DNA of 42,778 nucleotides from Solirubrobacterales bacterium. Its GTDB lineage: Bacteria > Actinomycetota > Thermoleophilia > Solirubrobacterales > Solirubrobacteraceae. Positions within the stretch are counted from its first letter, which is position 1, and every line of letters begins with the position of its first letter. The translations under genes were made by a program, and so were the position numbers. Location: assembly GCA_025964115.1 (NCBI GenBank), contig JAOPZM010000163.1, positions 1-42,778 of the forward strand. Reading direction: 5' to 3'. The notes under the pieces were generated by a model. The model made no database searches. It saw only the letters and a list, made by a program, of their open reading frames with translations, and was not told the DNA's origin. Of the stretch, positions 3,053 to 32,875 are shown in pieces.

Positions 3053-3071
3053 CGCCTATAGACTGCGGCCG

Positions 3072-3494: not shown

Positions 3495-3709
3495 TGGCGT
3501 CCGTCACGCGACGCATCAGCGTCGGCTTCCATGGCGGCCAGGTGCTCTCGGTGCGCGTCGACGAGAAGCAGTGGAAGGCCCTGAGCGAAGCGCTGGGCGG
3601 CACCGGCTGGATCGACGTCGAGACCGACGAAGGGCCCGTGCGGGTGAACCTCGACCAGCTCTCCTACGTGAGCGCCGACAGTAGCGAGCCGCACGTCGGC
3701 TTTGGCTAG
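3494..3709 (+). CDS. Small conserved-looking protein of unknown function (71 aa)
   Basis: I do not recognise the family. The 71-residue product is soluble, with alternating beta-like stretches (RRISVGFHGGQVLSVRV, WIDVETDEGPVRVNLDQLSYV) and no signal peptide or membrane segment; it reads like a small beta-rich domain. The start is fixed by the TGATG overlap with the epimerase gene. Its stop lies inside the next gene, which begins with a TTG at 3702. The tight overlaps on both sides support it as a real gene in the same operon. Confidence 0.65.
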   Translation: MASVTRRISVGFHGGQVLSVRVDEKQWKALSEALGGTGWIDVETDEGPVRVNLDQLSYVSADSSEPHVGFG

Positions 3710-20209: not shown

Positions 20210-20282
20210 GGCGAGATAGCTCAGTTGGTAGAGCACACGACTGAAAATCGTGGTGTCCCCAGTTCGAGTCTGGGTCTCGCCA
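20210..20282 (+). tRNA. tRNA-Phe (GAA)
   Basis: A complete 73-nt cloverleaf. The acceptor stem GGCGAGA pairs with TCTCGCC, the D stem is GCTC/GAGC, the anticodon stem CACGA/TCGTG encloses loop CTGAAAA with anticodon GAA, the T stem is CCCAG/CTGGG with loop TTCGAGT, and the discriminator is A. CCA is not encoded. Its 3' 42 bases plus the next T recur five more times downstream as truncated copies, marking it as an integration target. Confidence 0.97.
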
Positions 20283-20283
20283 T
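20241..20283 (+). repeat. attachment core 1 (3' part of the intact tRNA-Phe)
   Basis: The 43-bp core runs from C32 of the anticodon loop through the discriminator base plus one T. Here it is part of the functional tRNA gene and carries the A/T pair at the inner T-stem position (CCCAG/CTGGG). Confidence 0.9.
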
Positions 20284-20294
20284 TCCGCAGTTCT

Positions 20295-20303
20295 GCCTGC
20301 AAA
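20295..20303 (+). repeat. right-arm motif GCCTGCAAA of cassette 1
   Basis: It begins 12 bp after the end of core 1 and is the reverse complement of the left-arm motif. The same motif sits at the same distance after core 4 (27334) and, shortened to GCCTGC, 10 bp after core 5 (30797). Confidence 0.65.
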
Positions 20304-20842
20304 CAGGCGCCTTTCGCTCCGGCATGGATCGGCGGCCTTGCGTGCGTGATTGGGACCGTGAGGATTCGCCGCGGACCGAAAACGCCCTACTTTCGGCGGT
20401 TCTAACGCCTGGTGCGGTCATTTGGCTGTGATGGCTATGTCGACGGCCTCCACGAAACGGCTTGCTTGTGCGGTTCTTCGAGCGGTGACGGCGGGGACTC
20501 GAACGGAGCACACCACGACAGGATTCCTGGTGTGCTCCGCTTGAGGGCCGCCGAGCACTGGGACGTATGCGGGTTCCTAAATCTTGCTCGGAAGATGTCC
20601 CTCCAGGGCCCCTCAATGGACCTATGTGTAGCGCGATGAGAAGCTGCGCAAGCGACTGTCGACGTGCTGAGCACGCTCGCAAGGCTGAGCGAGCAGGCGC
20701 GAGGCCATCGTCCCGATGCAGAACCGAGGCCGCGCGGCGGCGCTCAAGGCATATACTCCATCGCTCACAAGTGGCGGGACGCCACGCGGAGGGGTTCGTG
20801 GAGACGTTGCGTCGCGAATTACGCGACTGAGGGGGGTTCCTC
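20304..20842. other. Non-coding stretch of cassette 1
   Basis: No convincing gene is present in 540 bp. It holds a perfect 12-bp inverted repeat (20504-20539) and a smaller palindrome GTCGCG-AATTA-CGCGAC (20811-20827) just before the start codon of the cargo gene. Confidence 0.6.
20504..20539. repeat. Perfect 12-bp inverted repeat
   Basis: CGGAGCACACCA (20504-20515) and TGGTGTGCTCCG (20528-20539) are separated by 12 bases. There is no T-run on either side. It could be an operator, a recombinase or transposase site, or an old terminator. Confidence 0.6.
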
Positions 20843-22483
20843 ATGTCTGTTGGACGAATGGGTGCGCGGACCCGCGATGACCGGCTTGCGGGCGTCCCGC
20901 TGGCCGAATGCTGCAAGCCGGGGACGCAGAGCACGCTGGCCGAAGGAACTAAGACGTTCACGCCCGAAGGCAGCAGACGGTCAGGGCGTCCCTGGCGTTG
21001 TGGTTTCGGAGCGGTCCTAGCGGTGACGTTTGTGCTCTCCGTCACGGGCAGCGCGTGGGCGGCGACCGCCTGGGTCTACGTCGCCAACCAAGGAAGCGGC
21101 ACGGTGACGCCGATCGAAGCCGCGACCAACAAACCCGGCGCCGAAATCAAAGTCGGCACCCTGCCGGCAGGCGTTGCGGTCACCCCCGACGGCAAGACTG
21201 CCTACGTCGCCAACGATTTAAGCGGCACGGTGACGCCGATCGAAGTGGCGACCAACAAACCCGGCCCCGAAATCAAAGTCGGTGGCGAACCGCGCGCGGT
21301 TGCGGTTACTCCCGACGGCAAGACTGCCTACGTCGCCAACCAAGGAAGCGGCACGGTGACGCCGATCGAAGTGGCGACCAACAAACCCGGCCCCGAAATC
21401 GGAGTCGGTTCCAATCCGGTTGGGATTGCGGTCACTCCCGACGGTAAAACGGCCTACGTCGCCAACTTCGAAAGCGGCACGGAAAGCAGCACGGTGACGC
21501 CGATCGAAGTGGCGACCAACAAACCCGGCCCCCCAATCAAAGTCGGTGGCGAACCGATTGGGATTGCGGTCACTCCCGACGGTAAAACGGCCTACGTCGC
21601 CAACGCGGCAAGCGGCACGGTGACGCCGATCGAAGTGGCGACCAACAAACCCGGCGCCGAAATCAAAGTCGGTGGCGAACCGTTTGGGGTTGCGGTCACC
21701 CCCGACGGCAAAACGGCCTACGTCGCCAACTTGGGAAGCGGCACGGTGACGCCGATCGAAGTGGCGACCAACACACCCGGCCCCGAAATCAAAGTCGGTT
21801 TCGGTCCGTTTGGGGTTGCGGTCACCCCCGACAGTAAAACGGCCTACGTCGCCAACTCGGCAAGCGGCACGGTGACGCCGATCGAAGTGGCGACCAACAA
21901 ACCCGGCGGCGAAATCACAGTCGGCAGCGAGCCGGGAGGCATTGCGGTCACCCGGATTTTTCAGGCGCCGACGGTCACGAAAGTCTCGGCGACTTCCGGC
22001 CCGGTCACCGGCGATAAAGTCGTGACGATCACCGGCACGAATCTCAGCCCTGCCGCAGCCGTGGAATTCGGCGGCGTACCCGCCAACACATATTTCATCA
22101 ACGAAGCCGCGACCGAAATCGCTGCTCTCTCCCCCGTGCGGGAAGTAGCTGGCACGGTCGATGTGACCGTGAGAACCCCAGGCGGCACGAGCAAAACCAC
22201 GACGAAAGACCACTACAAGTACCTGCCGGTGATCACCAGCATTAAACCCAACAGCGGTCCAGCGGGTGTCGAACAGCAGGTGGAAATCCTCGGTGCTGGG
22301 TTCAAGCCGGCAGGATCTGAAATCTTCTTCGGGGCGACGTTCGCCGGCAATGCCGAATGCTTCACGCCTACCTTCTGCGCTGCGTACTCGCCTGCACTGC
22401 CGAAAGGGAAATTCGAAGTCAAGGTCAAGGTCAACGGCCTCACGACCATAAAAACCAAAGCGGCACTGTTTACATCGTTCTAG
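20843..22483 (+). CDS. Secreted seven-bladed beta-propeller (YVTN/NHL type) plus two IPT/TIG domains
   Basis: The 546-residue product has an unusually long N-terminal region and a signal-like segment (about 54-73, GFGAVLAVTFVLSVTGSAWA). Seven repeats of about 42 residues follow, with the pattern TAYVAN-SGTVTPIEVATNKPG-EIKVG-P-GVAVTPDGK, enough for a closed seven-bladed propeller. Two IPT/TIG immunoglobulin-like domains follow (from about residue 375, SGPVTGDKVVTITGTNLSP, and about 460, NSGPAGVEQQVEILGAGF). These proteins are exported and bind ligands or surfaces; no catalytic motif is seen. The repeats are almost identical at DNA level, so they duplicated or homogenised recently. It is the only gene of cassette 1. 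Confidence 0.85.
   Translation: MSVGRMGARTRDDRLAGVPLAECCKPGTQSTLAEGTKTFTPEGSRRSGRPWRCGFGAVLAVTFVLSVTGSAWAATAWVYVANQGSGTVTPIEAATNKPGAEIKVGTLPAGVAVTPDGKTAYVANDLSGTVTPIEVATNKPGPEIKVGGEPRAVAVTPDGKTAYVANQGSGTVTPIEVATNKPGPEIGVGSNPVGIAVTPDGKTAYVANFESGTESSTVTPIEVATNKPGPPIKVGGEPIGIAVTPDGKTAYVANAASGTVTPIEVATNKPGAEIKVGGEPFGVAVTPDGKTAYVANLGSGTVTPIEVATNTPGPEIKVGFGPFGVAVTPDSKTAYVANSASGTVTPIEVATNKPGGEITVGSEPGGIAVTRIFQAPTVTKVSATSGPVTGDKVVTITGTNLSPAAAVEFGGVPANTYFINEAATEIAALSPVREVAGTVDVTVRTPGGTSKTTTKDHYKYLPVITSIKPNSGPAGVEQQVEILGAGFKPAGSEIFFGATFAGNAECFTPTFCAAYSPALPKGKFEVKVKVNGLTTIKTKAALFTSF
21062..21957 (+). repeat. Seven tandem 126-bp propeller repeats
   Basis: The units encode the blades of the secreted propeller. 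They share long identical stretches such as the block encoding GTVTPIEVATNKPG. Blade 4 is four residues longer (ESGTESSTVTP). Confidence 0.85.
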
Positions 22484-22504
22484 GTCCACGCCTCTAAACA
22501 GCAT

Positions 22505-22537
22505 CCGGCGGCCCGGCCCTCGCGGTCGGGCCGCCGG
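22505..22537 (+). terminator. GC-rich hairpin after the propeller gene
   Basis: CCGGCGGCCCG (22505-22515) and CGGGCCGCCGG (22527-22537) form an 11-bp perfect stem about 20 bp after the stop codon. No T-run follows, as is common in high-GC actinobacteria. Confidence 0.6.
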
Positions 22538-22649
22538 GGTGTCGGATATTCCCAGTGGTGGTTCGTGCCCGCGGGCAGAGGCCACTCCAAGTTGTGCTTT
22601 ACGAACAGAGCAGGCGTCTGGTCGGCGGCTGCGCTCACGACCGGGATCG

Positions 22650-22702
22650 GACGAGGAGGAGCAGCCCGGGCCGGAGCTGGGGTCGCACTCGCTTTGCTGC
22701 CC
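22650..22702 (+). repeat. Subterminal block shared with cassette 3 (copy 1)
   Basis: About 53 bp starting GACGAGGAGGAGCAGCC and ending in CGCTTTG plus a C-rich run. A diverged copy lies at 27222-27274 in cassette 3. No gene covers either copy. Confidence 0.55.
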
Positions 22703-22731
22703 AAGCAGAGGTCGCAAGCAGCAAGCGAAAT

Positions 22732-22755
22732 GGACGTGGCGGTCTCGCCACGTCC
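22732..22755 (+). terminator. Perfect 10-bp hairpin near the end of cassette 1
   Basis: GGACGTGGCG and CGCCACGTCC pair over the loop GTCT and are followed by TTAAG. It is a terminator-like structure about 110 bp before core 2; it could instead belong to the attachment region. Confidence 0.45.
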
Positions 22756-22780
22756 TTAAGCCGCAGGTAACTACGGCAAT

Positions 22781-22867
22781 CTACGGGTATCGACGTAGAG
22801 CACGCGCGATCAGCGAGCCGCCGATTTGCAGGCCCTTTCTGTCTTTTCCGGCACCAATTGCCCGTCC
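22781..22867 (+). repeat. Left arm type A, copy 1
   Basis: These 87 bp directly before core 2 align without gaps to 32746-32832 before core 6, with about 12 mismatches counted by eye. They contain GATTTGCAGGCC, in which TTTGCAGGC starts exactly 43 bp before the core. Confidence 0.75.
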
Positions 22868-22910
22868 CTGAAAATCGTGGTGTCCCCGGGCCGAGTCCGA
22901 GTCTCGCCAT
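22868..22910 (+). repeat. attachment core 2 (tRNA-Phe 3' fragment, decayed)
   Basis: A copy of the 43-bp core with substitutions in the T loop and stem (GGGCCGAGTCCGAG where intact copies have GGTTCGAGTCCGGG). No D arm or 5' acceptor strand precedes it, so it is not a tRNA gene. Confidence 0.85.
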
Positions 22911-22925
22911 TGCTTGGCGTGGGCT

Positions 22926-23200
22926 CTACGGTCCGGTGGTTGTCCGGAGGCCCGGACTGACGATGCGGGTCTCGTACGCGAGGACGACTGTTTGGACGCG
23001 GTCGCGGACGCCAAGCTTGATCAGGATGCGGGTGGCGCGGGTCGTGACGGTCGTCTCACCGACGATCAATTCGGTGGCGATCTCGGCGTTTGTCTCGCCG
23101 GTCGCGAGCAGCCGGAACACCTCGAGGTCGCGGGGAGTGAGCTCGTCGAGACCGGGTGCCTTCTCGACAGGGGATCGCGTGCTCCGCCGATCTGCGGCGT
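22926..23200 (-). pseudogene. LuxR/NarL-type DNA-binding domain fragment
   Basis: Read leftward, this encodes EKAPGLDELTPRDLEVFRLL, then ATGETNAEIATELIVGETTV and TTRATRILIKLGVRDRVQTV, the linker and helix-turn-helix of a NarL-type response regulator. The receiver domain is absent: an in-frame stop lies about 10 codons upstream, near the end of the DUF899 gene. The fragment is truncated at its 5' side, most likely by recombination within the cassette. A GTG at 23120 could still produce a bare 64-residue helix-turn-helix protein. Confidence 0.75.
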
Positions 23201-23207
23201 GAGGCCG

Positions 23208-23939
23208 TTAGAGGTAGTCCAGCCCCGGGAAGTTCGGCTCCTCGCCGCGACCGGCGGGCGTCGTGTCGAGCACATGCCAAAGCGGCCAGATCAGGTCTAC
23301 ATGCCGGGTCTCCTCCCCCGGCGGACCTTTGGCGAAAAGCAGCTCGGAGGCCCAGAAGTGTCGGATCTCCTCGCCTTCGCGGACGAACACGTTGAGGATC
23401 GGAAGCTGCTCGCCTTCTGCCGTCTCGGCGTGGTAGTTCCGGTTGTAGGCGTTATTGCGCGAGGACAGCACCCGCAGGTTGCGCCAGCCGCGCTCCTCGG
23501 CGAACGTTCGGACCCGGTCGCGAGCGGCCTTCGCGACCACCGCTAGGCTCAGGCGTTGTGCCAGGTGAGGCGCCGCGCCGTCGAGCCCGTCGAGGATTGA
23601 CGTGCATGAGGGGCATAGGGTCTCGGTGAGTGGCCACGAAGCGGTTTCGCCGCTGACAGCCCCCGGACGCGGGTCACCGGAGTAGCGCGGGAACATGAAG
23701 CTATAGATCACGAGTGTGGTCGTTTCAGGAGAGAAGAGTTCGGAGAGCCGGACCTCCTTGCCGTCGACGGTCTCAAAGCGGTAGTCGTCGGGAATGCTTC
23801 CTCCGAGCGGCAGAGCACGCCGCTGGGTTACGATCCTCTCGATCATCCGGCGAAGCTCGATCTCAGCCTCGAGCAAACGGTCGCGCTCCCGGCGATACTC
23901 GTCGGACTCTCCGGGGAAGCGGACGTGATGAAGGCTCAC
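23208..23939 (-). CDS. DUF899 (thioredoxin-like) family protein
   Basis: A 243-residue protein of the DUF899 family, often annotated as thioredoxin-like and of unknown biochemical role. Characteristic stretches are ALPLGGSIPDDYRFET, LVIYSFMFPRY, LCPSCTSILDGLDG with a CxxC pair in the thioredoxin active-site position, and NAYNRNYHAE. The start is a GTG at 23939 with AGGAGC upstream; no in-frame ATG is better placed. It precedes the LuxR fragment and follows the VOC gene by 20 bp on the same strand, so VOC and DUF899 probably form an operon. Confidence 0.8.
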   Translation of the reverse strand: MSLHHVRFPGESDEYRRERDRLLEAEIELRRMIERIVTQRRALPLGGSIPDDYRFETVDGKEVRLSELFSPETTTLVIYSFMFPRYSGDPRPGAVSGETASWPLTETLCPSCTSILDGLDGAAPHLAQRLSLAVVAKAARDRVRTFAEERGWRNLRVLSSRNNAYNRNYHAETAEGEQLPILNVFVREGEEIRHFWASELLFAKGPPGEETRHVDLIWPLWHVLDTTPAGRGEEPNFPGLDYL

Positions 23940-23959
23940 CTCATGCTCCTGTTGCCATC

Positions 23960-24388
23960 CTACCCACGCGTCGCGCCCTCGCGGACCGGCTGGGCGATCC
24001 CGATGAGGTTACCCTCGCTGTCGTAGAAGAAAGTGCCGAGCTCGCCCGTGCCCTTGCTCGAGTAGTTGTCGGGAGCGGCGATCGTGTCGCCGCGAACCTC
24101 GAAGCCAGCCATCTCGAAGCGCTCGAACGTCACACCGCGGGCTCGCAGATCGGCCAGGGTGGCCTCGAGGTCCTCGACCTCAAAGGCCATCTGAGTCGAT
24201 GCTCCGGACGGCGCTCCCGCCGAGCTGAAGAGATGGAACTCGCTCGGCCCGCACACGTAGCGCAGGCCGCCGGTGCTCTGCTCGACCGGCTCGAGCCCGA
24301 GCTTGTCGCGGTAGAAGGCGCGCGCTCGCTCCAGGTCCTGAGCGGGGAGCTTTGTGACGGTGTGGGCGTTGCTCAGCGATCCGGGCAT
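23960..24388 (-). CDS. VOC (glyoxalase/bleomycin-resistance fold) protein
   Basis: A 142-residue VOC protein with two beta-alpha-beta-beta-beta modules. The first begins at VTKLPAQDLERARAFYRDKL and the second at MAFEVEDLEATLADLRARGV; the C-terminal strand reads LGTFFYDSEGNLIGIAQ with the usual Glu/Asp position. Members are dioxygenases, isomerases or antibiotic-binding proteins, and the sequence does not decide which. The ATG at 24388 has a good AAGGAGA site 6 bp upstream. It is the first gene of the presumed two-gene operon with DUF899. Confidence 0.8.
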   Translation of the reverse strand: MPGSLSNAHTVTKLPAQDLERARAFYRDKLGLEPVEQSTGGLRYVCGPSEFHLFSSAGAPSGASTQMAFEVEDLEATLADLRARGVTFERFEMAGFEVRGDTIAAPDNYSSKGTGELGTFFYDSEGNLIGIAQPVREGATRG

Positions 24389-24483
24389 GGTCGTCTCCTT
24401 TGGGCGATCATGGTGTTAGGTATGGGACGCGGCGACGCCGCTGACGAAACTCGTCTCCGTTTGGTTGCCTTGGCCACGCGGCG

Positions 24484-24735
24484 GTGACCTCGAGAGGTGC
24501 GCTGCCGGCGTGGGACGATGTGCTCGTGAGAGCGCTCGCAGACTGGTTCGCGGAACGCAGCGCGAGAGGGATGCTCACGCGGATGCTCGGGGCATGGCTG
24601 CTCGTCGGGCTGCCAGTGATCGTCGCCAGAATCTGGTGGTCCGTCGCGGCGGCGATCGTGGTCTTCGCCGTCACCTTGACGCTGTACGTCGGCGCCGTGG
24701 TACACCATCTTCGCACGCACCCCCGGCCGGGTTGA
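24484..24735 (+). CDS. Putative small membrane protein (83 aa)
   Basis: The frame encodes an amphipathic N-terminus followed by two hydrophobic helices (GAWLLVGLPVIVARIWW and VAAAIVVFAVTLTLYVGAVV) and a basic tail (HHLRTHPRPG). The start is uncertain: GTGs at 24484, 24520 and 24526 are in frame and none has a strong ribosome-binding site. I recognise no family. The membrane-like pattern and fit between neighbours support it moderately. Confidence 0.45.
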   Translation: MTSRGALPAWDDVLVRALADWFAERSARGMLTRMLGAWLLVGLPVIVARIWWSVAAAIVVFAVTLTLYVGAVVHHLRTHPRPG

Positions 24736-24947
24736 CGGGACGAAGATTATGCTCGCGAGCGGGCGCACGCAACAGTAGGGATGCCAGACGGCGCGCCCGT
24801 CTCCACGTGGAGCTCTTGGCGCGATGATCGTCGCCCCGGTGTGACCGACGAGCGAGCGACCTCGCAACTGGCTCGATGAGTAGAGCGAGCTGCCGCCCGC
24901 CGTCGAATGGGCTCACTCAAGGTCGTGCAGTGCCGTCCGCGAACCGA
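24736..24947. other. Non-coding stretch of cassette 2 before the left arm
   Basis: Together with the arm and core, about 490 bp up to the cupin gene are without a gene. I see no RNA or promoter here other than the attachment structure. Confidence 0.5.
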
Positions 24948-25086
24948 ATGGGACCTGCGCCACGTCTCAGGTCCCAAACCCACGGGGAAGTAACGGAAAC
25001 TACGGGGATTGTCGCGCCAGCCCGGCATTCACGAACATCGCGATTTGCAGGCCATTTGCGGCCAAATCGCGACCCTCGCCCGACAG
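24948..25086 (+). repeat. Left arm type B, copy 1
   Basis: These 139 bp before core 3 match 30606-30744 before core 5. Shared parts are a GGGACCTG/CAGGTCCC hairpin (24950-24975), the run of ACGGGGAA, ACGGAA and ACGGGGA direct repeats, and GATTTGCAGGCCATTT; TTTGCAGGC begins exactly 43 bp before the core. Confidence 0.75.
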
Positions 25087-25129
25087 CTGAAAATCGTGGT
25101 GTCCCCAGTTCGAGTCTGGGTCTCGCCAT
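25087..25129 (+). repeat. attachment core 3 (tRNA-Phe 3' fragment)
   Basis: Identical by eye to core 1 over all 43 bp, including the A/T inner T-stem pair (CCCAG/CTGGG). There is no 5' half of a tRNA before it. Confidence 0.88.
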
Positions 25130-25228
25130 TTCCAAAGGTGCCCCGGTTTTCTAGCGAACAGACGAATGATTCGAGCGGTGGCGTCGCGCTGTTGCTGGCT
25201 CATCGTTGTCTCGACCGGTTTTCCCAGA

Positions 25229-25789
25229 TCAGGGCTTCGGCTCGCCGAGCAGCAGTTCGGTCCGGTACTTCGGGGCCAGTGCGGTCGCCTTGGCGATGAA
25301 CGCGCCGGTGGCAGCATCGTCGAGCGCCGGTGGAGCCTCGGTTCGGTGCCCGACCGGCACGCCGACCTCCTTGAAGAACTCCTCCTGGCCTGCGGGCGAG
25401 CAGAGGCACAGCAGGCGTGCAGGGCATTCGGAGACGTTCCGGAAAACGTGCGGCGCGTTGGCGGGCACATTGATCGTGTCGCCCGTCGTCGCAACGGCGC
25501 TGACGCCGCGGAACGTGAGTTCGATCTCGCCGTCAAGAATGGTGAACATCTCCTCGAAGTCGTGACGGTGGGGCGGCGGCCCGCCGCCCGGCGGGACGTG
25601 CATGTCGATCAACGTGTAGCGCCCAGCGGTGTCGGCTCCGGACGCAAGGATGGTGTAGGTGTCGCCAACCACTCCGAGGTGAGGCAACGAGTCATCGGTG
25701 TCGGGGCTCACGTGCGTCAGGACCCGCCCAGGGTCATCGGCGGGGACCGGTCCTGGCGGCTTCGACTCGGCGGGTGAGCTGTCGTTCAT
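25229..25789 (-). CDS. Cupin-domain protein
   Basis: A 186-residue single-domain cupin. The metal-binding motif is HRHDFEEMFTILDGEIEL (HxH with a following Glu), and motif 2 is seen as NVPANAPHVFRN with its His. A hydrophilic N-terminal leader of about 40 residues precedes the barrel. The ATG at 25789 has GAGGAG upstream. Such small cupins are dioxygenases, isomerases or binding proteins, and no assignment is possible. It lies in the same direction as the SnoaL-like gene, 111 bp downstream of it. Confidence 0.8.
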   Translation of the reverse strand: MNDSSPAESKPPGPVPADDPGRVLTHVSPDTDDSLPHLGVVGDTYTILASGADTAGRYTLIDMHVPPGGGPPPHRHDFEEMFTILDGEIELTFRGVSAVATTGDTINVPANAPHVFRNVSECPARLLCLCSPAGQEEFFKEVGVPVGHRTEAPPALDDAATGAFIAKATALAPKYRTELLLGEPKP

Positions 25790-25900
25790 CGGGCGCTCCT
25801 CTATCGTGGGCTAAGCGGTCGAAATCGTCCTTTTATGACCTGGAGCCTACGGTCAGCTGAAGCCGCCGTCCACTCCCCGGCCGGCCGACATCCCTCGCGA

Positions 25901-26359
25901 CTAGGCGAGGCCGATCTGCTGGGCCTGCAGCGCGGAGTTCCAGAAGGCGCCAATTTCGATGAGCCGGTCGCCGTCCCACCGGCTGGTTTGGACGAAGTCG
26001 ACGTCGAACGCCTTTCCTGTCGGCGGGATCGCGTTGCCGTCGGGCAGGGTCATCTCGCCGGTGAAGGTTCCTGTGGTGCGGGTGACAACGGTGATCCAGT
26101 CGCCGCTTCCGAACTGGACTGGATATGGGTCGTTGTCGACGTGGGCGTCCGGGAAGATGCTGAACATCTGCTTCATCGCTGCCGCGTGTGCTGCCCGTCC
26201 GTAGAGCGGCTCTGCGTTCCCTGTGATGTAAGCGATCATGTCCGGGTGATGGACCGCGTCCATCGCTGCGAAGTCGCGGGAGTTGAAGGCGTCATCGCCC
26301 TCCTTCATGAGCGCGAGGAGGTGTGGGGTCCGGCTGGTGTCGTCCGTCGTGGCAGCCAT
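25901..26359 (-). CDS. SnoaL/NTF2-like fold protein
   Basis: A 152-residue protein of the SnoaL-like polyketide cyclase/NTF2 superfamily. It starts with a helix (LLALMKEGDDAFNSRDFAAM) and HHPDMIAYITGNAEPLYGRA. A beta-sheet follows, with DWITVVTRTTGTFTGEM and GKAFDVDFVQTSRWDGDRL. The ATG at 26359 has a purine-rich AAAGGGAG site; the frame is open for 30 more codons upstream but these cross the regulatory region. It is divergent from the TetR gene, which probably controls it. Confidence 0.82.
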   Translation of the reverse strand: MAATTDDTSRTPHLLALMKEGDDAFNSRDFAAMDAVHHPDMIAYITGNAEPLYGRAAHAAAMKQMFSIFPDAHVDNDPYPVQFGSGDWITVVTRTTGTFTGEMTLPDGNAIPPTGKAFDVDFVQTSRWDGDRLIEIGAFWNSALQAQQIGLA

Positions 26360-26440
26360 GAGGGCTCCCTTTCTTGGTTGGTGATGCCCTGGATCACGGC
26401 CGCCTTGGCCGATCTCCGGTTGCTGAGTGGAACGTTCGAC

Positions 26441-26472
26441 TTGGATCAAATATTAGAGTGAACTATGATATT
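26441..26472 (+). promoter_or_regulatory. Promoter and imperfect operator between SnoaL-like and TetR genes
   Basis: TTGGAT (26441-26446), 17 bp, then TATGAT (26464-26469) form a good promoter whose predicted start falls on the ATG at 26476, implying a leaderless tetR mRNA. An imperfect 24-bp palindrome, AATATTAGAGTG/AACTATGATATT (26449-26472), overlaps the -10 and is a candidate autoregulatory TetR site. Confidence 0.55.
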
Positions 26473-26475
26473 AGC

Positions 26476-27195
26476 ATGCAGTCTATATTGTCCCTTGGAG
26501 CCGCTAAGCTGCGTGAGATGCCTAGCTCCGGACTGCGCGAGCGCAAGAAGGCGCGCACCCGCCGACTCATTGCCGGCACCGCGGCCCGCCTGTTCGCTGA
26601 GCGCGGCTATGAGCATGTCTCCGTCAGTGACGTGGCACGCGAGGCCGAGGTCGCCGAGCAAACGGTCTACAACTACTTTCGGACCAAGGGCGAGTTGGTC
26701 ACCGATCAGGACGAGGAGATTCGGGATCGGCTATGCGACCTGATCCGCTCTCGACCGCCCGCCGTTACTCCGGCAGCTGCCATTCGCGACTCCGTCCTAG
26801 AGTCCGTCGCCGGCATACGCAGTATCCCGGCGGACATCTGGCGTGGCGAGATCGGCTATCTGGCGGCCATCAGCCCCACCGTCCACCGGCTGGTGCTGGA
26901 GTTGACCGACCGCCAAGCCGCCGCTCTCGCCAGCGCCATAAGCGACACCACGGCCGTCGCGCCGGAGGTCGCCAAGCTGCAGGGGATCGCCCTCGCCGCC
27001 GTGTTCCAGATCATCATCAGCGAAGCCGGCCAGCGCACCCTCGAGGGCCAGAGCCAGGCAAAGATCGCTGACGAGCTGTACCCAATCGTTGAAAACATCC
27101 TCGACGAACTCGACCGCTGGCTCAGCGTCTCGGGATCGCCGACCAGCACGATGCAAGCGAGCAGCGCCACCCCGACCTTGCCAGGGGCTTCGTAG
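26476..27195 (+). CDS. TetR-family transcriptional regulator (cassette 3)
   Basis: A 239-residue regulator with the N-terminal helix-turn-helix RLIAGTAARLFAERGYEHVS, then VSDVAREAEVAEQTVYNYF and RTKGELV, and an all-helical ligand domain. The promoter position suggests a leaderless start at 26476; the ATG at 26518 (MPSSGLRERKK) is the alternative, closer to the usual TetR N-terminus. It likely represses the divergent SnoaL-like and cupin genes and itself through the palindrome upstream. The ligand is unknown. Confidence 0.87.
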   Translation: MQSILSLGAAKLREMPSSGLRERKKARTRRLIAGTAARLFAERGYEHVSVSDVAREAEVAEQTVYNYFRTKGELVTDQDEEIRDRLCDLIRSRPPAVTPAAAIRDSVLESVAGIRSIPADIWRGEIGYLAAISPTVHRLVLELTDRQAAALASAISDTTAVAPEVAKLQGIALAAVFQIIISEAGQRTLEGQSQAKIADELYPIVENILDELDRWLSVSGSPTSTMQASSATPTLPGAS

Positions 27196-27221
27196 CACTC
27201 ACGGCTAAGAGCCGGCCACCA

Positions 27222-27274
27222 GACGAGGAGGAGCAGCCTGAGCCGGACACGCACCCACGCTCGCTTTGTACCCC
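27222..27274 (+). repeat. Subterminal block shared with cassette 1 (copy 2)
   Basis: This diverged copy of 22650-22702 starts GACGAGGAGGAGCAGCC and ends CGCTTTGTACCCC, and lies only about 5 bp before core 4. In cassette 1 the block is 165 bp from the core, so the ends are mosaic. Confidence 0.55.
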
Positions 27275-27279
27275 CGTCC

Positions 27280-27322
27280 CTGAAAATCGTGGTTTCCCCG
27301 GTTCGAGTCCGGGTCTCGCCAT
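27280..27322 (+). repeat. attachment core 4 (tRNA-Phe 3' fragment)
   Basis: A 43-bp core with the G/C version of the inner T-stem pair (CCCGG/CCGGG) and one change in the variable loop (GTTTC for GTGTC). No 5' tRNA half precedes it. Confidence 0.88.
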
Positions 27323-27333
27323 TCTCCCTTTCT

Positions 27334-27342
27334 GCCTGCAAA
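27334..27342 (+). repeat. right-arm motif GCCTGCAAA of cassette 4
   Basis: It starts 12 bp after core 4, with TTTCT before it; after core 1 the context is AGTTCT, then the same GCCTGCAAA at the same distance. Confidence 0.65.
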
Positions 27343-27458
27343 TGAGCGTGAGGCGCTCGGTGGCGCGGTCGACCATCGGGCGGGACCTGTCGATGCCGAT
27401 ACCCACGAGTACGGGGGCGGTCCCCGTCGAGGAGTGCGTCGGCCCCGGGAGCCCCGCG

Positions 27459-28073
27459 TCAGTCGAGCCGGAGCCGCACGCGAGGATCGGCTTGCCTGGC
27501 TGCCATGAGCGCGGCGCCGAACGCGGCGAGCAGCAGCTCGCGTAGCTTCGCGCGCGGGAGATCTTTGCTTTCGGTCCAATCGAGGATCGCCGCGTCCATG
27601 TAGCCGAGCCAACCTTTGATCGCGATACGCAGCGCGGGCCTCGGCTTACGCCCCTCCGTCAGCTGGGCCAGGATGAGGTCCATGGTCCGCTGGCGGAAGC
27701 CCTCGACGAGCTCGCGGGCCTCCGGCAGCGTGGCCGCGCTCTGCAGCAGCTTCGACCAGGTTTGGGCGTTGTCTTCGATCCACGCGAGGTAGGAGTCGAG
27801 GACTTGCGAGAGCTGCTCGATCGCCGGGCCATCACTGCTGGGCTCGATAAGGCGCTGGAGCTCCTCGGCCTTCTCCGACACGGCGGCCTTGAAAAGGTCG
27901 ATCTTCGAAGGGAAGTAGTGGTACAGCAGCGGCTTCGACACTCCCGCCGCCTCGGCTAACTCACGCATCGAGATCTCCTCGAAGGAGTGCTTCGCGAACA
28001 GTTCGGCGCCGGCGTCCAGCAGCTGACGGCGGCGCTCGTCGACTTGCATGCGCGTGTAGGCGGGCTGGCTCAC
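27459..28073 (-). CDS. TetR-family transcriptional regulator (cassette 4)
   Basis: A 204-residue regulator. Its helix-turn-helix reads LLDAGAELFAKHSFEEISMR, then ELAEAAGVSKPLLYHYFPSK, an archetypal TetR_N domain, followed by a helical ligand-binding domain. I chose the GTG at 28073 (VSQPAYTRMQVDERRR); the frame extends 13 codons upstream into the operator region. It is divergent from the DUF2339 gene, and two inverted 17-bp boxes lie between them, so it probably represses both. Confidence 0.88.
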   Translation of the reverse strand: MSQPAYTRMQVDERRRQLLDAGAELFAKHSFEEISMRELAEAAGVSKPLLYHYFPSKIDLFKAAVSEKAEELQRLIEPSSDGPAIEQLSQVLDSYLAWIEDNAQTWSKLLQSAATLPEARELVEGFRQRTMDLILAQLTEGRKPRPALRIAIKGWLGYMDAAILDWTESKDLPRAKLRELLLAAFGAALMAARQADPRVRLRLD

Positions 28074-28094
28074 AGCTCCGAGTCTAGCCGATTG

Positions 28095-28155
28095 TTGACC
28101 GACGGTTGACAAGATGGGCCATGAGCTCTATGGTGCTTATCAACCGACGGTCAAC
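28095..28155 (+). promoter_or_regulatory. DUF2339 promoter flanked by two inverted 17-bp operator boxes
   Basis: A strong promoter, TTGACA (28106-28111), 17 bp, TATGGT (28129-28134), is bracketed by GTTGACCGACGGTTGAC (28095-28111) and ATCAACCGACGGTCAAC (28139-28155). These are reverse complements except at the first and central bases. The first box covers the -35 and the second lies just downstream of the -10, the classic layout for repression by the divergent TetR protein. Confidence 0.7.
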
Positions 28156-28170
28156 AGTGGGAGGAAGCCG

Positions 28171-30426
28171 ATGCTCGAGACAAGCCACGGACTTGACATT
28201 GAGGAGAGGCTCAGCCGGATCGAAAGCCAGGTCGAGGAGCTCAATGCGAGCGTGGGTCGAGGTCGGTCGCCCGCTGACACGCGCGCTGCAGGTGCGGTGC
28301 GACGCGAGCCAGACGTCGGCCGACAGACCCCCCGCCCCGCACCGCGTGCGACGCCCCACATCGAGATCCGCCTCGACTCCCGCTCGCCGTCACCGGAGCG
28401 CTCGGCTGAAGCGAGAGCCTCGCTCTGGCACCTCCCCGACCGCTCGCTCAGCGACCTGCTCGGCGGTCGCGTGCTCGCGTGGCTCGGCGGAGTCACGACG
28501 CTGGTCGGCATCGTCCTCTTCCTCGGCCTCGCCGTATCACGCGGTTGGATAGGCGAGGAGGCGCGGACCGGTCTCGCCGCGGCCGCGTCGTGCGCGCTTC
28601 TGCTCGGCGGGGCCTGGCTTCACAGCCGCCGCGGCAGAACCGAGGCGGCGAAGGCGATGATCGGGGCAGCGACGGCGGCGCTGTTCGCGACCTTGATCGT
28701 CGCCAGCCAGGTCTACGAGCTGATCCCGGCCGGACTCGCCCTCGCCCTCGCCCTGCTCGTCGGTGGCGTCGCGACGACCCTCGCGATCCGCTGGGGCGGA
28801 CGCGCGATCGGCGCAATCGGACTGGTCGGGGCGCAGCTATCACCGGTGCTGGTGGGCGCCTCTCCAAGCGCGGCGACGGTTGCGGTGCTGGCGCTCGCGA
28901 ACGCCTGCGCCGTCTGCGTCGTGGCGCGCCAGCGGTGGAGCTGGCTCGTGCTGGCGAGCGTGGTCGTGTGCGCTCCGCAATGGGCCACGTGGGTGCTCGA
29001 CGGCCAGTCCACGTTGGCCACCGCGGGGGCACTCGCCGCTTTCGCCGCCCTGGGGATGATCGGCGCGGTCGCATCGCAGGCTCGCTCCGGCGAGGAGCGA
29101 CTGCTTCGCGCGAGCGCTGCGGTGGCGAGTCTCAGCGCGTGTCTCGTCGCTGCAGTGGGGCGCGTCGCTCTCGACAATTCCTCCGGGGAGGCGCTGGCCG
29201 AGCTCTGGCTCGGGGCGCTGGCCGTCGCACACGTCGTCATCGGCGCCTGGCGCTTCCGCCGGGTGGCGCTGGCAGCGCCGATGCGTCAGCTGTTGATCTC
29301 GATCGGAGTGGTCCTCGCCGATGTCGCCTTCGCATTCGGCGGCAGCGGGATCGCGCTGGTCGTAGGCTGGGGCGCGACCGCCGTAGGGTTCGCGTGGCTG
29401 GTCGGCCGCAGCCAGCCACACACCCGTGACGGCATGCTGCTCAGCCTCGGGCTGGGCGTTCACATCGCGCTCACACTGATGCGGGCGCTCATCGACGCAC
29501 CCCCGGGCGGGCTCGGCTCGACCGACCCGCAGCTGATCCCACTGCTGTCCGTCTGCACCCTGGCCTCCACGTGCGTCGCCTCAGGCCTCCTCATCGGTAG
29601 CGGACGCCGGCGGCCGCAGGCGGCGATCAACACCGTGGGCCTTGTCTCGATCGCGTACCTGACGGCTTCGGCGTTCAGCGGCCCCGCGCTCGTCTGCGCG
29701 TGGTGTGTCGAGGCGGTGGCGCTCATGCAGCTCTGGCGAACATCGGGAGACGCGGTCGCGCGGTTCGGCGCGCTCGGCTTCCTCGGCCTCGCGCTGCTGC
29801 ACGCCCTCGTTGCCGAGGCGCCACCGGTCGCACTCGTGACGGGCGTGGACGACCTCGGCGCCGCCGTGGTTGCACTCGGGGCGATCGCGCTGGCCGCCGC
29901 TCGCTCCGGGCGGACGCAGACAGCCGATGCGCCGTGGAGACATCGTCTGCTCGGCAGCGCCGCCGCCACCCTGCTGTACCTCGTCTCCGTCGCAATCGTG
30001 ACCGTTTTTCAGCCCGGGACCGAAACCAGCACGGAAACGGTCCTCGACCTCACCGTGCGTCAAGAGGGACAGGTCCTGCTGAGCGCCCTGTGGAGCGTGG
30101 TCGGCGTGGGCGCGCTCGTCATGGGGCTGCGCCGGCGCGATGACACGGTTCGCAGGCTCGCCCTGGCGTGGCTGATGGTCGCGGTTGCCAAGGTCTTTCT
30201 GTACGACCTGTCGACCCTCACGTCTATCTTCCGCGTGGTCTCGTTCGTCGTGCTTGGACTGCTGCTGCTGGCAGGTGCGTACGCTCATCAGCGTCTGCGC
30301 CCGCAATCACCGCCCGACCTGCGCATGACACACGAGGACGACTCGGGGGAGCAAGACCCGGCCGCTGGAGTGAGCGAGCCACCGAAAACACCGCGTCGCC
30401 TCCCCATTGAACCTATGCGGCGATGA
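28171..30426 (+). CDS. DUF2339 polytopic membrane protein
   Basis: A 751-residue protein beginning with a soluble coiled-coil leader (LDIEERLSRIESQVEELNAS) and a Pro/Arg linker, then about twenty hydrophobic helices to residue ~710 and a hydrophilic tail. The motif LGGRVLAWLGGVTTLVGIVL at the first helix and the regular helix spacing fit the DUF2339 family, whose function is unknown. The ATG at 28171 has GGGAGGAA upstream; the open frame before it lies in the promoter. It is the large cargo gene of cassette 4. Confidence 0.85.
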   Translation: MLETSHGLDIEERLSRIESQVEELNASVGRGRSPADTRAAGAVRREPDVGRQTPRPAPRATPHIEIRLDSRSPSPERSAEARASLWHLPDRSLSDLLGGRVLAWLGGVTTLVGIVLFLGLAVSRGWIGEEARTGLAAAASCALLLGGAWLHSRRGRTEAAKAMIGAATAALFATLIVASQVYELIPAGLALALALLVGGVATTLAIRWGGRAIGAIGLVGAQLSPVLVGASPSAATVAVLALANACAVCVVARQRWSWLVLASVVVCAPQWATWVLDGQSTLATAGALAAFAALGMIGAVASQARSGEERLLRASAAVASLSACLVAAVGRVALDNSSGEALAELWLGALAVAHVVIGAWRFRRVALAAPMRQLLISIGVVLADVAFAFGGSGIALVVGWGATAVGFAWLVGRSQPHTRDGMLLSLGLGVHIALTLMRALIDAPPGGLGSTDPQLIPLLSVCTLASTCVASGLLIGSGRRRPQAAINTVGLVSIAYLTASAFSGPALVCAWCVEAVALMQLWRTSGDAVARFGALGFLGLALLHALVAEAPPVALVTGVDDLGAAVVALGAIALAAARSGRTQTADAPWRHRLLGSAAATLLYLVSVAIVTVFQPGTETSTETVLDLTVRQEGQVLLSALWSVVGVGALVMGLRRRDDTVRRLALAWLMVAVAKVFLYDLSTLTSIFRVVSFVVLGLLLLAGAYAHQRLRPQSPPDLRMTHEDDSGEQDPAAGVSEPPKTPRRLPIEPMRR

Positions 30427-30605
30427 CACGCGTGCCAGCCCCACCGCCACGAAGGAGTGGGTGCGCGCAACAGAATCCGTGCTCCCGGGACGGTTACATG
30501 TCGCCACGCCTCCATGCCCCGCTGTCGTCGACCGCCGGTCGCGAGGACAGCCCAAACTCCCTGGGTGGGGTGGGATCCGCTGAGGCGACGTCTGTCGGCG
30601 ATCGG
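30427..30605. other. Non-coding end of cassette 4
   Basis: From the DUF2339 stop to the hydrolase stop, about 565 bp have no gene. This part shows nothing recognisable; the rest is the type-B arm, core 5 and the beginning of cassette 5. Confidence 0.5.
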
Positions 30606-30744
30606 ATGGGCCCTGAGCTGCATCTCAGGTCCCAAAGTCACGGGGAACCAGCCGAAACTACGGGGATTGCGGCGTCAGCCGCAGGATGCACAAACATCAT
30701 GAGTTGTAGGCATTTCGTGGCCAAATCCCCACCGCTCTTAGGCC
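30606..30744 (+). repeat. Left arm type B, copy 2
   Basis: 139 bp related to 24948-25086. The hairpin is kept as GGGCCCTGAG/CTCAGGTCCC with one mismatch, AACTACGGGGATTG is identical, and the motif region reads GAGTTGTAGGCATTTC, a degenerate TTTGCAGGC shifted by one base (42 bp before core 5). Confidence 0.72.
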
Positions 30745-30787
30745 CTGAAAATCGTGGTGTCCCCGGTTCGAGTCCGGGTCTCGCCAT
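30745..30787 (+). repeat. attachment core 5 (tRNA-Phe 3' fragment)
   Basis: A 43-bp core with the G/C inner T-stem pair (CCCGG/CCGGG), otherwise as in core 1. No 5' tRNA half is present. Confidence 0.88.
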
Positions 30788-30991
30788 CCGCGTTTTGCCT
30801 GCTCAGGGGCATGTTCTGACTCGGAGCTGTGTCGCCTGACTGGTGGAGTTCTGGACCTGGTAGGTCCGCCCCATCCTAAACGCGCTCGTTTTTCGCGGTT
30901 TGCCGCGCGAACTGACGAGCGTCGGCTGCAATGTCGGGACCTTCTTGATCGCCGGAAATGGCTTGCTTGTGCTCACGCCTGCTACCGACGT

Positions 30992-31816
30992 TCACGACTG
31001 CAGGAAGGCCAGCAGGTCCGGGTTGATCGTTTCGGCTTGCGTGGTCGGCATGCCGTGCGGGAATCCTTTGTAGGTCTTCAGCGTCCCGTTCTGCACGAGC
31101 TCCGCCGACAGTGGTCCGGAGTCGGCGTAGGGAACGATCTGGTCGTCATCACCATGCATGACCAGGACCGGCACCGTGATCTTCTTGAGGTCCTCGGTGA
31201 AATCGGTCTGCGAGAAGGCCACGATTCCGTCGTAGTGCGCCTTCGCGCCGCCGGTCATCCCCTGACGCCACCAGTTCTCGATGATCGCCTCAGAGGGTTC
31301 CACGCCCGGCCGGTTGAAACCGTAGAACGGACCTGCGGCCAGCTCGCGGTAGAACTCCGACCGGCGGTTGGCGACCTGGACCTGAAAGCCGTCGAACACG
31401 CTCTTGGGCAGCCCGCCGGGGTTGGCGTCGGTCTGAACCATCAGCGGCGGGACCGAACTGATCAGGACCGCCTTTGCCACGCGGCTCTCACCGTGTCTTG
31501 CGATGTAGCGAACGACCTCGCCACCACCCGTGGAGTGTCCCACGTGAACAGCGTTCTCTAGATCGAGATGGGCAACGACCGAAGCCAGATCATCGGCGTA
31601 GTGGTCCATGTCGTGACCAACGCTGGTCTGTGTGGAGCGTCCGTGGCCACGCCGATCGTGAGCGATCACTCTGAAGCCATGCTGCAAGAAGAACAGCATC
31701 TGGGTGTCCCAATCGTCAGCCGACAACGGCCAGCCGTGGCTGAAGATGATCGGTTGGCCCGAACCCCAGTCCTTGAAGAAAATCGAGACGCCTTCGGTCG
31801 TAGTGATCGTGCCCAT
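30992..31816 (-). CDS. Alpha/beta hydrolase (non-heme chloroperoxidase/esterase type)
   Basis: A 274-residue hydrolase with the complete catalytic apparatus: the oxyanion [11 protein letters not shown], the nucleophile elbow GHSTGG, the acid in [11 protein letters not shown] and the His in [10 protein letters not shown]. The N-terminal [20 protein letters not shown] is typical of cofactor-free haloperoxidase-like esterases. They hydrolyse esters and perhydrolyse acids as a side activity; the natural substrate is unknown. The ATG at 31816 has an AAAGGAGGGAG ribosome-binding site, so the 30 extra in-frame codons upstream are not used. It is divergent from a TetR gene. Confidence 0.88.
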
Positions 31817-31875
31817 CTGCGCTCCCTCCTTTGGTCTAAGCGCGGAACGCCCGCGTAGAGCACGAACATACATCC

Positions 31876-31897
31876 TTTCTCGACATCTGTCGAGAAA
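31876..31897. promoter_or_regulatory. Perfect 22-bp palindromic operator
   Basis: TTTCTCGACA-TC-TGTCGAGAAA is a perfect 10-bp inverted repeat with a two-base centre, midway between the divergent hydrolase and TetR genes. Its size and position fit the operator of the adjacent TetR regulator. Confidence 0.7.
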
Positions 31898-31933
31898 AGT
31901 GCGCACATGTTAGGTATGGCATGATCGACAGGA

Positions 31934-32566
31934 ATGAACTCGGCACGACGCCGCGCCCGCCACAACTCCGGTCCCCGACTCGGCGACCAGCGCCGCGCTG
32001 CACTACTGGCCGCGCTCGAGCACCTGCTCACAACCCGCCCACTTGCCGAGATCGCGATCCGGGACATCACCCGCGACGCCGGCCTGAGCCGCTCCTCCTT
32101 CTACTTCTATTTCCCGACCAAGGGCGCAGCCGTCGCGGCCCTGCTCGCCGATTTCCAAGCGGACATGCAGAAGGCGGCCGTCGCCTGGTATGACGGGGGC
32201 CCAGGCACGGCCCTGCAGCGCACACAAGCAGGGCTCACCGCCACGATCGAGCTCTGGCGTTCCAACGGCCGAATCCTCGTCGCGCTGCTCGACGCGACCG
32301 GAACGGACCCCGAACTACGCGAGATCTGGGACGCCTGGAACCAAGGATTCATCCAACGCGTCGCCGACCGAATCGTCGAAGACCGCAACGCCGGCCTCGC
32401 GCGCGGAACCGCGGACCCCCACGCGCTCGCGACCGCACTCCTCGGAGCATCCATCTTCACCGTGGAACAAGACCTCCGCGCGATCCTCGCAGGACAAGAC
32501 CCGTCCGACACAATCCAACCCGCGCTCGTCGAACTCTGGCACCGCACCCTCTACCAAAGCGATTAG
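31934..32566 (+). CDS. TetR-family transcriptional regulator (cassette 5)
   Basis: A 210-residue regulator related to the EthR-like branch: LLAALEHLLTTRPLAEIAIR, then DITRDAGLSRSSFYFYFPTK as the helix-turn-helix, then a long helical domain with WDAWNQGFIQRVADRI. EthR-type proteins have the same SRSSFYFYFPSK recognition helix and control oxidoreductase or hydrolase neighbours. It starts with the ATG at 31934 and probably represses the divergent hydrolase via the 22-bp palindrome. Confidence 0.87.
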   Translation: MNSARRRARHNSGPRLGDQRRAALLAALEHLLTTRPLAEIAIRDITRDAGLSRSSFYFYFPTKGAAVAALLADFQADMQKAAVAWYDGGPGTALQRTQAGLTATIELWRSNGRILVALLDATGTDPELREIWDAWNQGFIQRVADRIVEDRNAGLARGTADPHALATALLGASIFTVEQDLRAILAGQDPSDTIQPALVELWHRTLYQSD

Positions 32567-32745
32567 CAGGCGCCGCTGTCCACCGAAACGCACGGACCAC
32601 GCGATCCACGCGGTCACGACCGCCGTGACGACGACAGTCGAGATGGTTGTGGCCGACCTCAGTCCCGTCCGTCCCCGCAACAGCCGATCCTGCGCTCTGG
32701 CGACACCATCGTCTGCGTGCGGTGAGGCTGGCTGCTTCAAGCAAG
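32567..32745. other. Non-coding end of cassette 5
   Basis: No supported gene lies between the TetR stop and the type-A arm. The minus strand could encode a short hydrophobic segment (ATTISTVVVTAVVTAWIAW), but there is no start codon or ribosome-binding site for it. Confidence 0.5.
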
Positions 32746-32832
32746 CTACCGGTATCGACGTGGAATACGCGCGATCAGCGGCCCGCCGATTTGCAGGGCC
32801 TTTCTGACTTTTCCGGCACGGATTACCCGTGC
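32746..32832 (+). repeat. Left arm type A, copy 2
   Basis: 87 bp aligned without gaps to 22781-22867, about 12 mismatches. TTTGCAGGG (one change from TTTGCAGGC) begins at 32790, exactly 43 bp before core 6. Confidence 0.75.
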
Positions 32833-32875
32833 CTGAAAATCGTGGTGTCCCCGGTTCGAGTCCGGGTCTCGCCAT
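32833..32875 (+). repeat. attachment core 6 (tRNA-Phe 3' fragment), distal end of the array
   Basis: A 43-bp core identical by eye to core 5 (G/C T-stem version). It has a left arm but no right arm, as expected for the outermost junction with the chromosome. Confidence 0.88.

What the first reader, a model, noticed from the sequence alone, without database searches (positions are those of the whole stretch)
22781..22910. Inverted arm motifs at fixed distance on both sides of the cores
Left motif TTTGCAGGC(G) starts exactly 43 bp before cores 2, 3 and 6 (22825, 25044, 32790) and, degenerate, 42 bp before core 5. Its reverse complement GCCTGCAAA starts exactly 12 bp after cores 1 and 4 (20295, 27334), and a partial GCCTGC lies 10 bp after core 5. 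The outermost chromosomal sides (left of core 1, right of core 6) lack it. When the ends of one cassette are joined, this gives motif-core-inverted motif, the architecture of an attP site with arm-type recombinase sites. Independent cassettes share it, so they are likely served by one enzyme.
Basis: seen in the sequence. Interest (0 to 1): 0.82.

Follow-up and report, generated by a model that had tools for sequence, protein, structure and literature searches.

The report
Shared recombinase arms beside tRNA-Phe cassettes
A soil actinobacterium carries five small gene packages stacked behind one tRNA gene; four of the five end in the same short landing signal, which recurs across its whole family at the ends of similar inserted packages and beside matching integrase genes, so they probably move with the help of an enzyme supplied from elsewhere.

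Summary
The window (a Solirubrobacteraceae MAG) has six copies of the tRNA-Phe 3' half bounding five integrase-less cassettes. A weight matrix trained only on other genomes' left flanks ranks the left arms of cores 2, 3, 5 and 6 as the four best of about 85,500 positions in the window. The motif is 16-18 bp (GAARnnCCTGCAAATC), not 9. The right copies are weaker: cores 1 and 4 good, core 5 partial. Core 4 has no left arm, cores 2 and 3 no right arm. Only cassette 1 clearly has both.

Across the family the two sides are the same motif in inverted orientation: a left-trained matrix finds right flanks (37/117; shuffles 0.3) and a right-trained one finds left flanks (15/35; shuffles 0.4). DNA upstream of tRNA-Phe is syntenic and DNA downstream is not, so the arms lie in inserted DNA. 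The same arm follows other tRNAs and accompanies an integrase subfamily with an arm-binding-like N-terminal domain. The window's own genome lacks that integrase.

Best reading: accreted, non-autonomous tRNA-Phe elements using lambda-type att sites, served in trans. Tandem integrase-less islands at tRNA-like genes are known; the shared arm is a new variant.

The parts
20210..20282 (+). tRNA-Phe (GAA) gene, the integration target; its 3' 43 nt (20241-20283, starting at the first base of the anticodon loop) is core 1
   Evidence: ARAGORN; core alignment
20290..20307 (+). right arm after core 1 (GTTCTGCCTGCAAACAGG), start of cassette 1; also a GCCTG-CAAA-CAGGC hairpin
   Evidence: score 9.2, per-position p 1.1e-4 with relatives-only matrix
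20284..22867 (.). cassette 1: beta-propeller/TIG-domain protein 20843-22483 (+)
22821..22838 (-). left arm before core 2 (CCGATTTGCAGGCCCTTT)
   Evidence: rank 2 in window, score 17.8
22868..22910 (+). core 2 (tRNA-Phe 3' copy)
22911..25086 (.). cassette 2: DUF899 23208-23939 (-), glyoxalase 23960-24388 (-), LuxR-type HTH remnant near the left end (read by eye)
25040..25057 (-). left arm before core 3 (GCGATTTGCAGGCCATTT)
   Evidence: rank 4 in window, score 13.2
25087..25129 (+). core 3
25130..27279 (.). cassette 3: cupin (-), SnoaL-like (-), TetR (+); no arm detected at either end
27280..27322 (+). core 4
27329..27346 (+). right arm after core 4 (TTTCTGCCTGCAAATGAG)
   Evidence: score 9.1, per-position p 1.3e-4
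27323..30744 (.). cassette 4: TetR 27459-28112 (-), DUF2339 membrane protein 28114-30426 (+)
30699..30716 (-). left arm before core 5 (ATGAGTTGTAGGCATTTC)
   Evidence: rank 3 in window, score 15.6
30745..30787 (+). core 5
30792..30809 (+). partial right arm after core 5 (GTTTTGCCTGCTCAGGGG)
   Evidence: score 0.5, weak
30788..32832 (.). cassette 5: alpha/beta hydrolase 30992-31906 (-), TetR/EthR-like 31934-32566 (+)
32786..32803 (-). left arm before core 6 (CCGATTTGCAGGGCCTTT)
   Evidence: rank 1 in window, score 19.4
32833..32875 (+). core 6, distal end of the array; no right arm

Best explanation
The paired motifs are arm-type recombinase sites of a lambda-like (heterobivalent) tyrosine-integrase system. 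Each cassette is, or was, a non-autonomous integrative element. Its circular form would carry left arm - tRNA-Phe core - right arm. Strand exchange in the 7-nt anticodon loop inserts it so that the tRNA gene is rebuilt, and repeated insertion at the same core stacks cassettes (accretion). No cassette encodes a recombinase, so integration and excision would be done in trans by a tRNA-Phe-targeting tyrosine integrase; the best candidate is the HTH-inserted subfamily found in relatives (L148/L191 type). Shown by computation: the shared inverted motif, fixed spacing, inserted context, absence of recombinase genes in the cassettes, and co-occurrence with that integrase subfamily. Inferred: protein-DNA binding, the identity of the enzyme, and present-day mobility.
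For: Left-only matrix predicts right flanks: 37 of 117 non-redundant right flanks hit at +2..+12, shuffles 0.32, other windows 0-1. The right-only matrix, trained on right flanks that the left matrix had picked and without the window, predicts inverted left flanks: 15/35, shuffles 0.40, maximum 3. Twelve of the 15 start within 1 bp of -47 and one at -45; two are at -57, and a weaker one at -66, i.e. about one and two helical turns further. A relatives-only matrix ranks the window's four left arms 1-4. Upstream of tRNA-Phe 162/351 genome pairs share an ORF within 4 kb, downstream 3/253; the same contrast is seen at tRNA-His. So the arms travel with inserted DNA. The arm is present at +5/6 where the L148-type integrase, the related L142/L051 enzymes or their C-terminal remnants abut an intact tRNA 3' end: Phe in G164, G013, G117, G159, G047; Ile in G015; Arg in G003 (G179 is an exception, see against). 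The three more distant integrases beside tRNA-Thr lack it. Base rate 12/51 tRNAs. G174 holds a 10.1-kb element between tRNA-Phe and a displaced Phe core with an intact L148-type integrase and the motif at both ends. The integrase N-terminal 77 aa fold as bbb-a (pLDDT 86); the top three VIA-align matches are arm-type binding domains (3ju0 Z 5.4, 3rmp Z 5.3, 3jtz Z 4.7). Left arms show no hairpin signal (mean z 0.03).
Against: The host MAG lacks an L148-type integrase and has only three PF00589 proteins, though it is 85% complete and mobile DNA bins poorly. In the integrase-bearing G174 element the left motif is in direct, not inverted, orientation, so that enzyme is not shown to use the window's geometry. 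Displaced tRNA-His cores lack the inverted left arm. G179 has integrase remnants beside tRNA-Phe but no right arm at the tRNA itself. Right arms beside whole tRNAs often also look like terminators (19/26 with a T-run among all right hits). Cassettes 2 and 3 lack one or both arms. The N-terminal fold match is modest in Z.
Confidence: 0.74

Rival explanations
1. The right motif is simply the transcription terminator or 3' trailer of the tRNA gene, carried along because elements must keep the tRNA gene working; the left motif is unrelated or a decayed inverted copy.
For: Right copies often form hairpins with a T-run (19/26), e.g. GCCTG-CAAA-CAGGC at core 1 (sequence). The motif follows several tRNA isoacceptors.
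Against: A matrix from left flanks alone finds the right motif, and vice versa. Left copies have no fold and few T-runs. Only about a quarter of tRNAs have the motif, sporadically among orthologues. It is almost absent away from tRNA/att sites in 1.57 Mb, unlike a general terminator.
Confidence: 0.12
2. Shared ancestry only: cassettes share ends because they descend from one element; the motif has no current function.
For: Within the window the ends of cores 2/6 and 3/5 are homologous.
Against: Across 35 left flanks clustered below 60% identity, the motif is conserved while the surrounding flank is not; deviations in spacing are mainly about 10 or 20 bp.
Confidence: 0.06
3. The arms bind a different protein (accessory bending factor, excisionase/RDF or repressor) rather than the integrase N-terminal domain.
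For: No binding is shown; a small HTH_17 protein, possibly an excisionase, lies in the G174 element.
Against: Inverted placement on both sides at fixed core distance and association with one integrase subfamily across tRNAs fit integrase arms better.
Confidence: 0.08

Closest known systems
Dehalococcoides ssrA-specific genomic islands (PMC3146451, read)
   Same: Tandem islands bounded by repeats of the 3' end of an essential tRNA-like gene; 15 of 31 lack an integration module and are called possible cis-mobilizable elements; a conserved 15-bp motif adjoins the repeat.
   Different: Serine recombinase (CcrB type), tmRNA target, motif directly abutting the repeat; no inverted arm pair described in the passages read.
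Additive flexible genomic islands with tRNA-fragment repeats ('Ca. Actinomarinales' PMC7771536; Methylophilaceae PMC10872708)
   Same: Gene cassettes inserted at tRNA 3' ends, leaving recurring tRNA fragments; cassette-like variable content; single-copy tRNA-Phe named among the tRNAs concerned in Actinomarinales.
   Different: No arm sites or enzyme assigned in the passages read; different phyla or orders.
CIMEs and tandem accretion in ICE/IME biology (as discussed in PMC3146451)
   Same: att-flanked segments without recombination or transfer genes, stacked at one site.
   Different: Mobilisation is not shown here; cassettes are 2-3.5 kb with small metabolic or regulator modules.
Lambda/P4-type attP with arm-type sites and heterobivalent integrase
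   Same: Core plus distal arms on both sides; candidate integrase matches lambda and Tn1549 integrases and, for its N-terminal domain, P4-like arm-binding domains.
   Different: One detectable arm per side; the arm is shared by cassettes with no integrase and by elements at different tRNAs; the candidate integrase has an HTH insertion.

Membership tests
Cis-mobilizable / non-autonomous tRNA-nested element | Flanked on both sides by recombination cores derived from one target gene | tested here: met
   Six tRNA-Phe 3' cores bound five cassettes
Cis-mobilizable / non-autonomous tRNA-nested element | Encodes no recombinase or transfer gene | tested here: met
   Cassette ORFs are cargo and regulators only; the genome's PF00589 matches all lie on other contigs
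Cis-mobilizable / non-autonomous tRNA-nested element | Moves when a recombinase is supplied in trans | not testable with these tools
   Needs an excision or integration assay
Lambda-type attP (arm-type sites) | Short repeated sites on both sides of the core at fixed distance, distinct from the core | tested here: met
Lambda-type attP (arm-type sites) | Sites bound by the N-terminal domain of the integrase | not testable with these tools
   Candidate integrase has a bbb-a N-terminal domain; top VIA matches are arm-binding domains, Z about 5
Lambda-type attP (arm-type sites) | Cognate tyrosine integrase in the same genome | tested here: inconclusive
   Not found in the 85%-complete MAG; present in relatives of the same genus and family
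Intrinsic terminator | Stable hairpin followed by a T-run at every copy | tested here: not met
   Left copies have no fold signal (mean z 0.03) and 4/11 T-runs
Integron cassette array | attC sites with an IntI integrase | tested here: inconclusive
   Recombination cores are tRNA-Phe 3' ends and no integrase adjoins the array; attC sites and IntI were not searched as such
Dehalococcoides-type ssrA island | CcrB-like serine recombinase | not tested
   Serine recombinases were not searched; the elements linked here carry tyrosine recombinases
Tycheposon | tRNA-nested cargo element with its own tyrosine recombinase | tested here: not met
   No recombinase in any cassette; definition as cited in PMC10872708

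The most novel reading that the evidence does not exclude
One 16-18-bp arm signal is a common currency across Solirubrobacterales: elements at Phe, His, Ala, Ile, Arg, Lys, Met, Gly, Thr and other tRNAs share the arm while the core changes with the tRNA. Integrase-less cassettes would then be served by a family of integrases with the same arm-binding domain but different core specificity, giving a cassette economy analogous to integrons but built on tRNA cores.
Probability: 0.35. Interest if true: 0.78.

Novelty: new variant of a known kind. Interest (0 to 1): 0.6.

Why it matters
Integrase-less tRNA-bounded cassettes are seen in many bacteria, but what moves them is usually unknown. Here a conserved arm pair links cassettes with unrelated cargo to a specific integrase subfamily, so that 'moved in trans by one enzyme family' becomes directly testable. 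The motif also gives a sequence tag for finding such cassettes in fragmentary soil metagenomes.

Tried and rejected
Two viral-collection scans for the arm+core and for the core gave nothing. The genome's own third integrase (C120, 542 aa) sits beside a displaced tRNA-Met 3' fragment with a hairpin, not the arm pair, so it is not the obvious server (tRNA assignment by eye). The terminator explanation was taken seriously because right copies often fold; it was demoted. A native-trailer reading (displaced His and Thr fragments are also followed by the motif) was demoted because everything downstream of tRNA-His and tRNA-Phe is non-syntenic even within the genus; a displaced core followed by the motif is then the next element of an array. 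Inverted left arms were sought at tRNA-His element ends and not found. Cargo homologues of the window cassettes beside tRNA-Phe in fetched relatives: none convincing. Foldseek with the N-terminal domain alone gave no significant hit; only the VIA re-ranking points to arm-binding domains.

Full report
What is there. The window is contig C249 of a 3.0-Mb, 85%-complete MAG. Named records of relatives that carry the same arm+core place it in or near Solirubrobacteraceae. A complete tRNA-Phe gene (20210-20282) is followed by five more copies of its 3' 43 nt. The repeat starts at the first base of the 7-nt anticodon loop (CTGAAAA), a usual crossover place for tyrosine integrases (general knowledge). 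The five intervals hold ordinary cargo: a beta-propeller/TIG protein; DUF899 and glyoxalase; cupin, SnoaL and TetR; TetR and DUF2339; alpha/beta hydrolase and TetR. None encodes a recombinase. A seventh core lies on contig C216.

Checking the motif. I collected tRNA-Phe cores and flanks from 100 relatives and then the whole family. In 31 non-tRNA left flanks, TTTGCAGG with up to one mismatch occurs at exactly -43 in eight cases, including relatives in other genera and one genome of another family of the order; wrong-orientation hits show no such focus.

Two-way prediction. A matrix trained only on left arms, read in reverse complement (consensus GAAAnnCCTGCAAATC), was run over 117 non-redundant right flanks: 37 hits at +2..+12 against 0.32 in shuffles and 0-1 in other windows. 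A matrix trained only on right arms outside the window was then run over 35 non-redundant left flanks: 15 inverted hits against 0.40 in shuffles. The right set had been picked with the left matrix, so the two tests are not fully independent. Twelve of the 15 start within 1 bp of -47 and one at -45; two start at -57, and a weaker one at -66. These offsets are about one and two helical turns, as expected if an arm-bound protein must face the core (inference). Trained on seven left arms from other genomes only, the matrix ranks the arms at cores 32833, 22868, 30745 and 25087 first to fourth among all window positions.

Not a terminator, not native. Strong hits are almost confined to tRNA genes and att cores: 65 in 1.57 Mb against about 1 expected. 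Right copies often have a T-run and hairpin, but left copies do not. I considered that the right motif might be a native tRNA trailer, since other tRNAs carry it too: 12 of 51 in three genomes, and tRNA-His sporadically among orthologues. Synteny argues against this. Upstream of tRNA-Phe 162 of 351 genome pairs share an ORF within 4 kb; downstream only 3 of 253 do. Upstream of tRNA-His synteny is likewise conserved and downstream it is not. DNA to the right of these tRNAs is therefore inserted, and the arm is the part that recurs in it.

The enzyme. Scanning the loci for tyrosine recombinases found an integrase lying antisense against tRNA-Phe in G164, with the arm between them. Homologues at 50-64% identity occur in several genomes of the window's genus, but not in the window's own genome. 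Members or remnants abut tRNA-Phe (G164, G013, G117), tRNA-Ile (G015) and tRNA-Arg (G003, a more distant member), each with the arm at +5/6; more distant integrases beside tRNA-Phe in G047 and G159 also have it, and the three beside tRNA-Thr do not. G179 is an exception at the tRNA itself, but its displaced Phe core has both an integrase remnant and a left arm at -43. G174 has a 10.1-kb tRNA-Phe element with an intact integrase, ParDE, a replication-relaxation protein, a small HTH protein and a Dam-like methylase; its right-arm position carries the arm and its other end carries the motif in direct orientation. The protein is lambda/Tn1549-like, with an HTH insertion ahead of the catalytic boxes and a bbb-a N-terminal domain. 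Its best VIA matches are arm-type binding domains of the HAI7, P4-like and HPI integrases, at modest Z of 4.7-5.4.

Mechanism. Most likely each cassette's circular form was left arm - core - right arm, recombined at the tRNA-Phe anticodon loop by an integrase supplied in trans, and stacked by repeated insertion. Core variants (AGTTCGAGTCTGGG in cores 1 and 3, GGTTCGAGTCCGGG in 4-6) suggest that the cassettes came from hosts with different tRNA-Phe alleles (inference). Loss of arms in cassettes 2 and 3 suggests that some are fossils.

Known and new. Tandem integrase-less islands at tRNA-like genes are established: Dehalococcoides ssrA islands (PMC3146451) and additive genomic islands with tRNA-fragment repeats in 'Ca. 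Actinomarinales' (PMC7771536) and Methylophilaceae (PMC10872708). I found no description there of a shared inverted arm pair or of an arm shared across different tRNA targets; only open-access text was searched. An exact scan of 84,980 species genomes for the arm+core found five stretches, all labelled Solirubrobacteraceae or Actinobacteria MAGs. I rate it a new variant of a known kind.

Limits. No binding, excision or transfer is shown. Many relatives are fragmented genomes with contigs ending at the core. The integrase-bearing element with both ends known has a different left-arm orientation. tRNA-His elements lack the inverted left arm.

Noticed in passing
L045:10741(-), L081:7845(-), L086:7982(+): A left-arm motif (TTTGCAGGG / TTAGCAGG) sits 14 nt upstream of a complete tRNA-Phe gene, i.e. 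at -45 from the anticodon loop, as if some elements carry a whole tRNA-Phe in their att site.
   Followed up: no
L148:2130-3587(-), L191:6190-7692(+) and homologues: Tyrosine-integrase subfamily with a GerE/HTH_23-like helix-turn-helix inserted in the catalytic domain and a CxCGCGGGW stretch in the N-terminal domain.
   Followed up: partly
L267 (G000 C78, tRNA-Thr ggt) and L266 (G000 C146, tRNA-Val cac): The window's genome has further tRNA-nested insertions: displaced 45- and 42-nt tRNA 3' copies 5.1 kb and 1.5 kb downstream; the Thr copy is followed by the arm motif.
   Followed up: partly
L044:2560-2610 and 2690-4315 (G000 C120): A 542-aa integrase lies beside a displaced tRNA-Met(CAT) 3' fragment followed by a hairpin, a tRNA-Met element of another integrase type (tRNA assignment by eye).
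   Followed up: partly
L041:474-495 and 1852-1894 (G000 C216): Another Phe core, plus a truncated 22-nt core (GTTCGAGTCTGGGTCTCGCCAT), flank a lysylphosphatidylglycerol-synthase-like membrane protein gene, possibly a sixth cassette or part of a second array.
   Followed up: partly
window 26374-27195, 27459-28112, 31934-32566: Three of five cassettes pair a TetR-type regulator with a divergently oriented neighbour, a self-contained regulator-plus-target layout.
   Followed up: no
L203:2723-3043 (G003 C62) and L194:7928-8001 (G016 C20): Second, divergent tRNA-Phe (GAA) genes near integrase pieces, with altered anticodon and T stems; one is followed by a displaced copy of itself.
   Followed up: no
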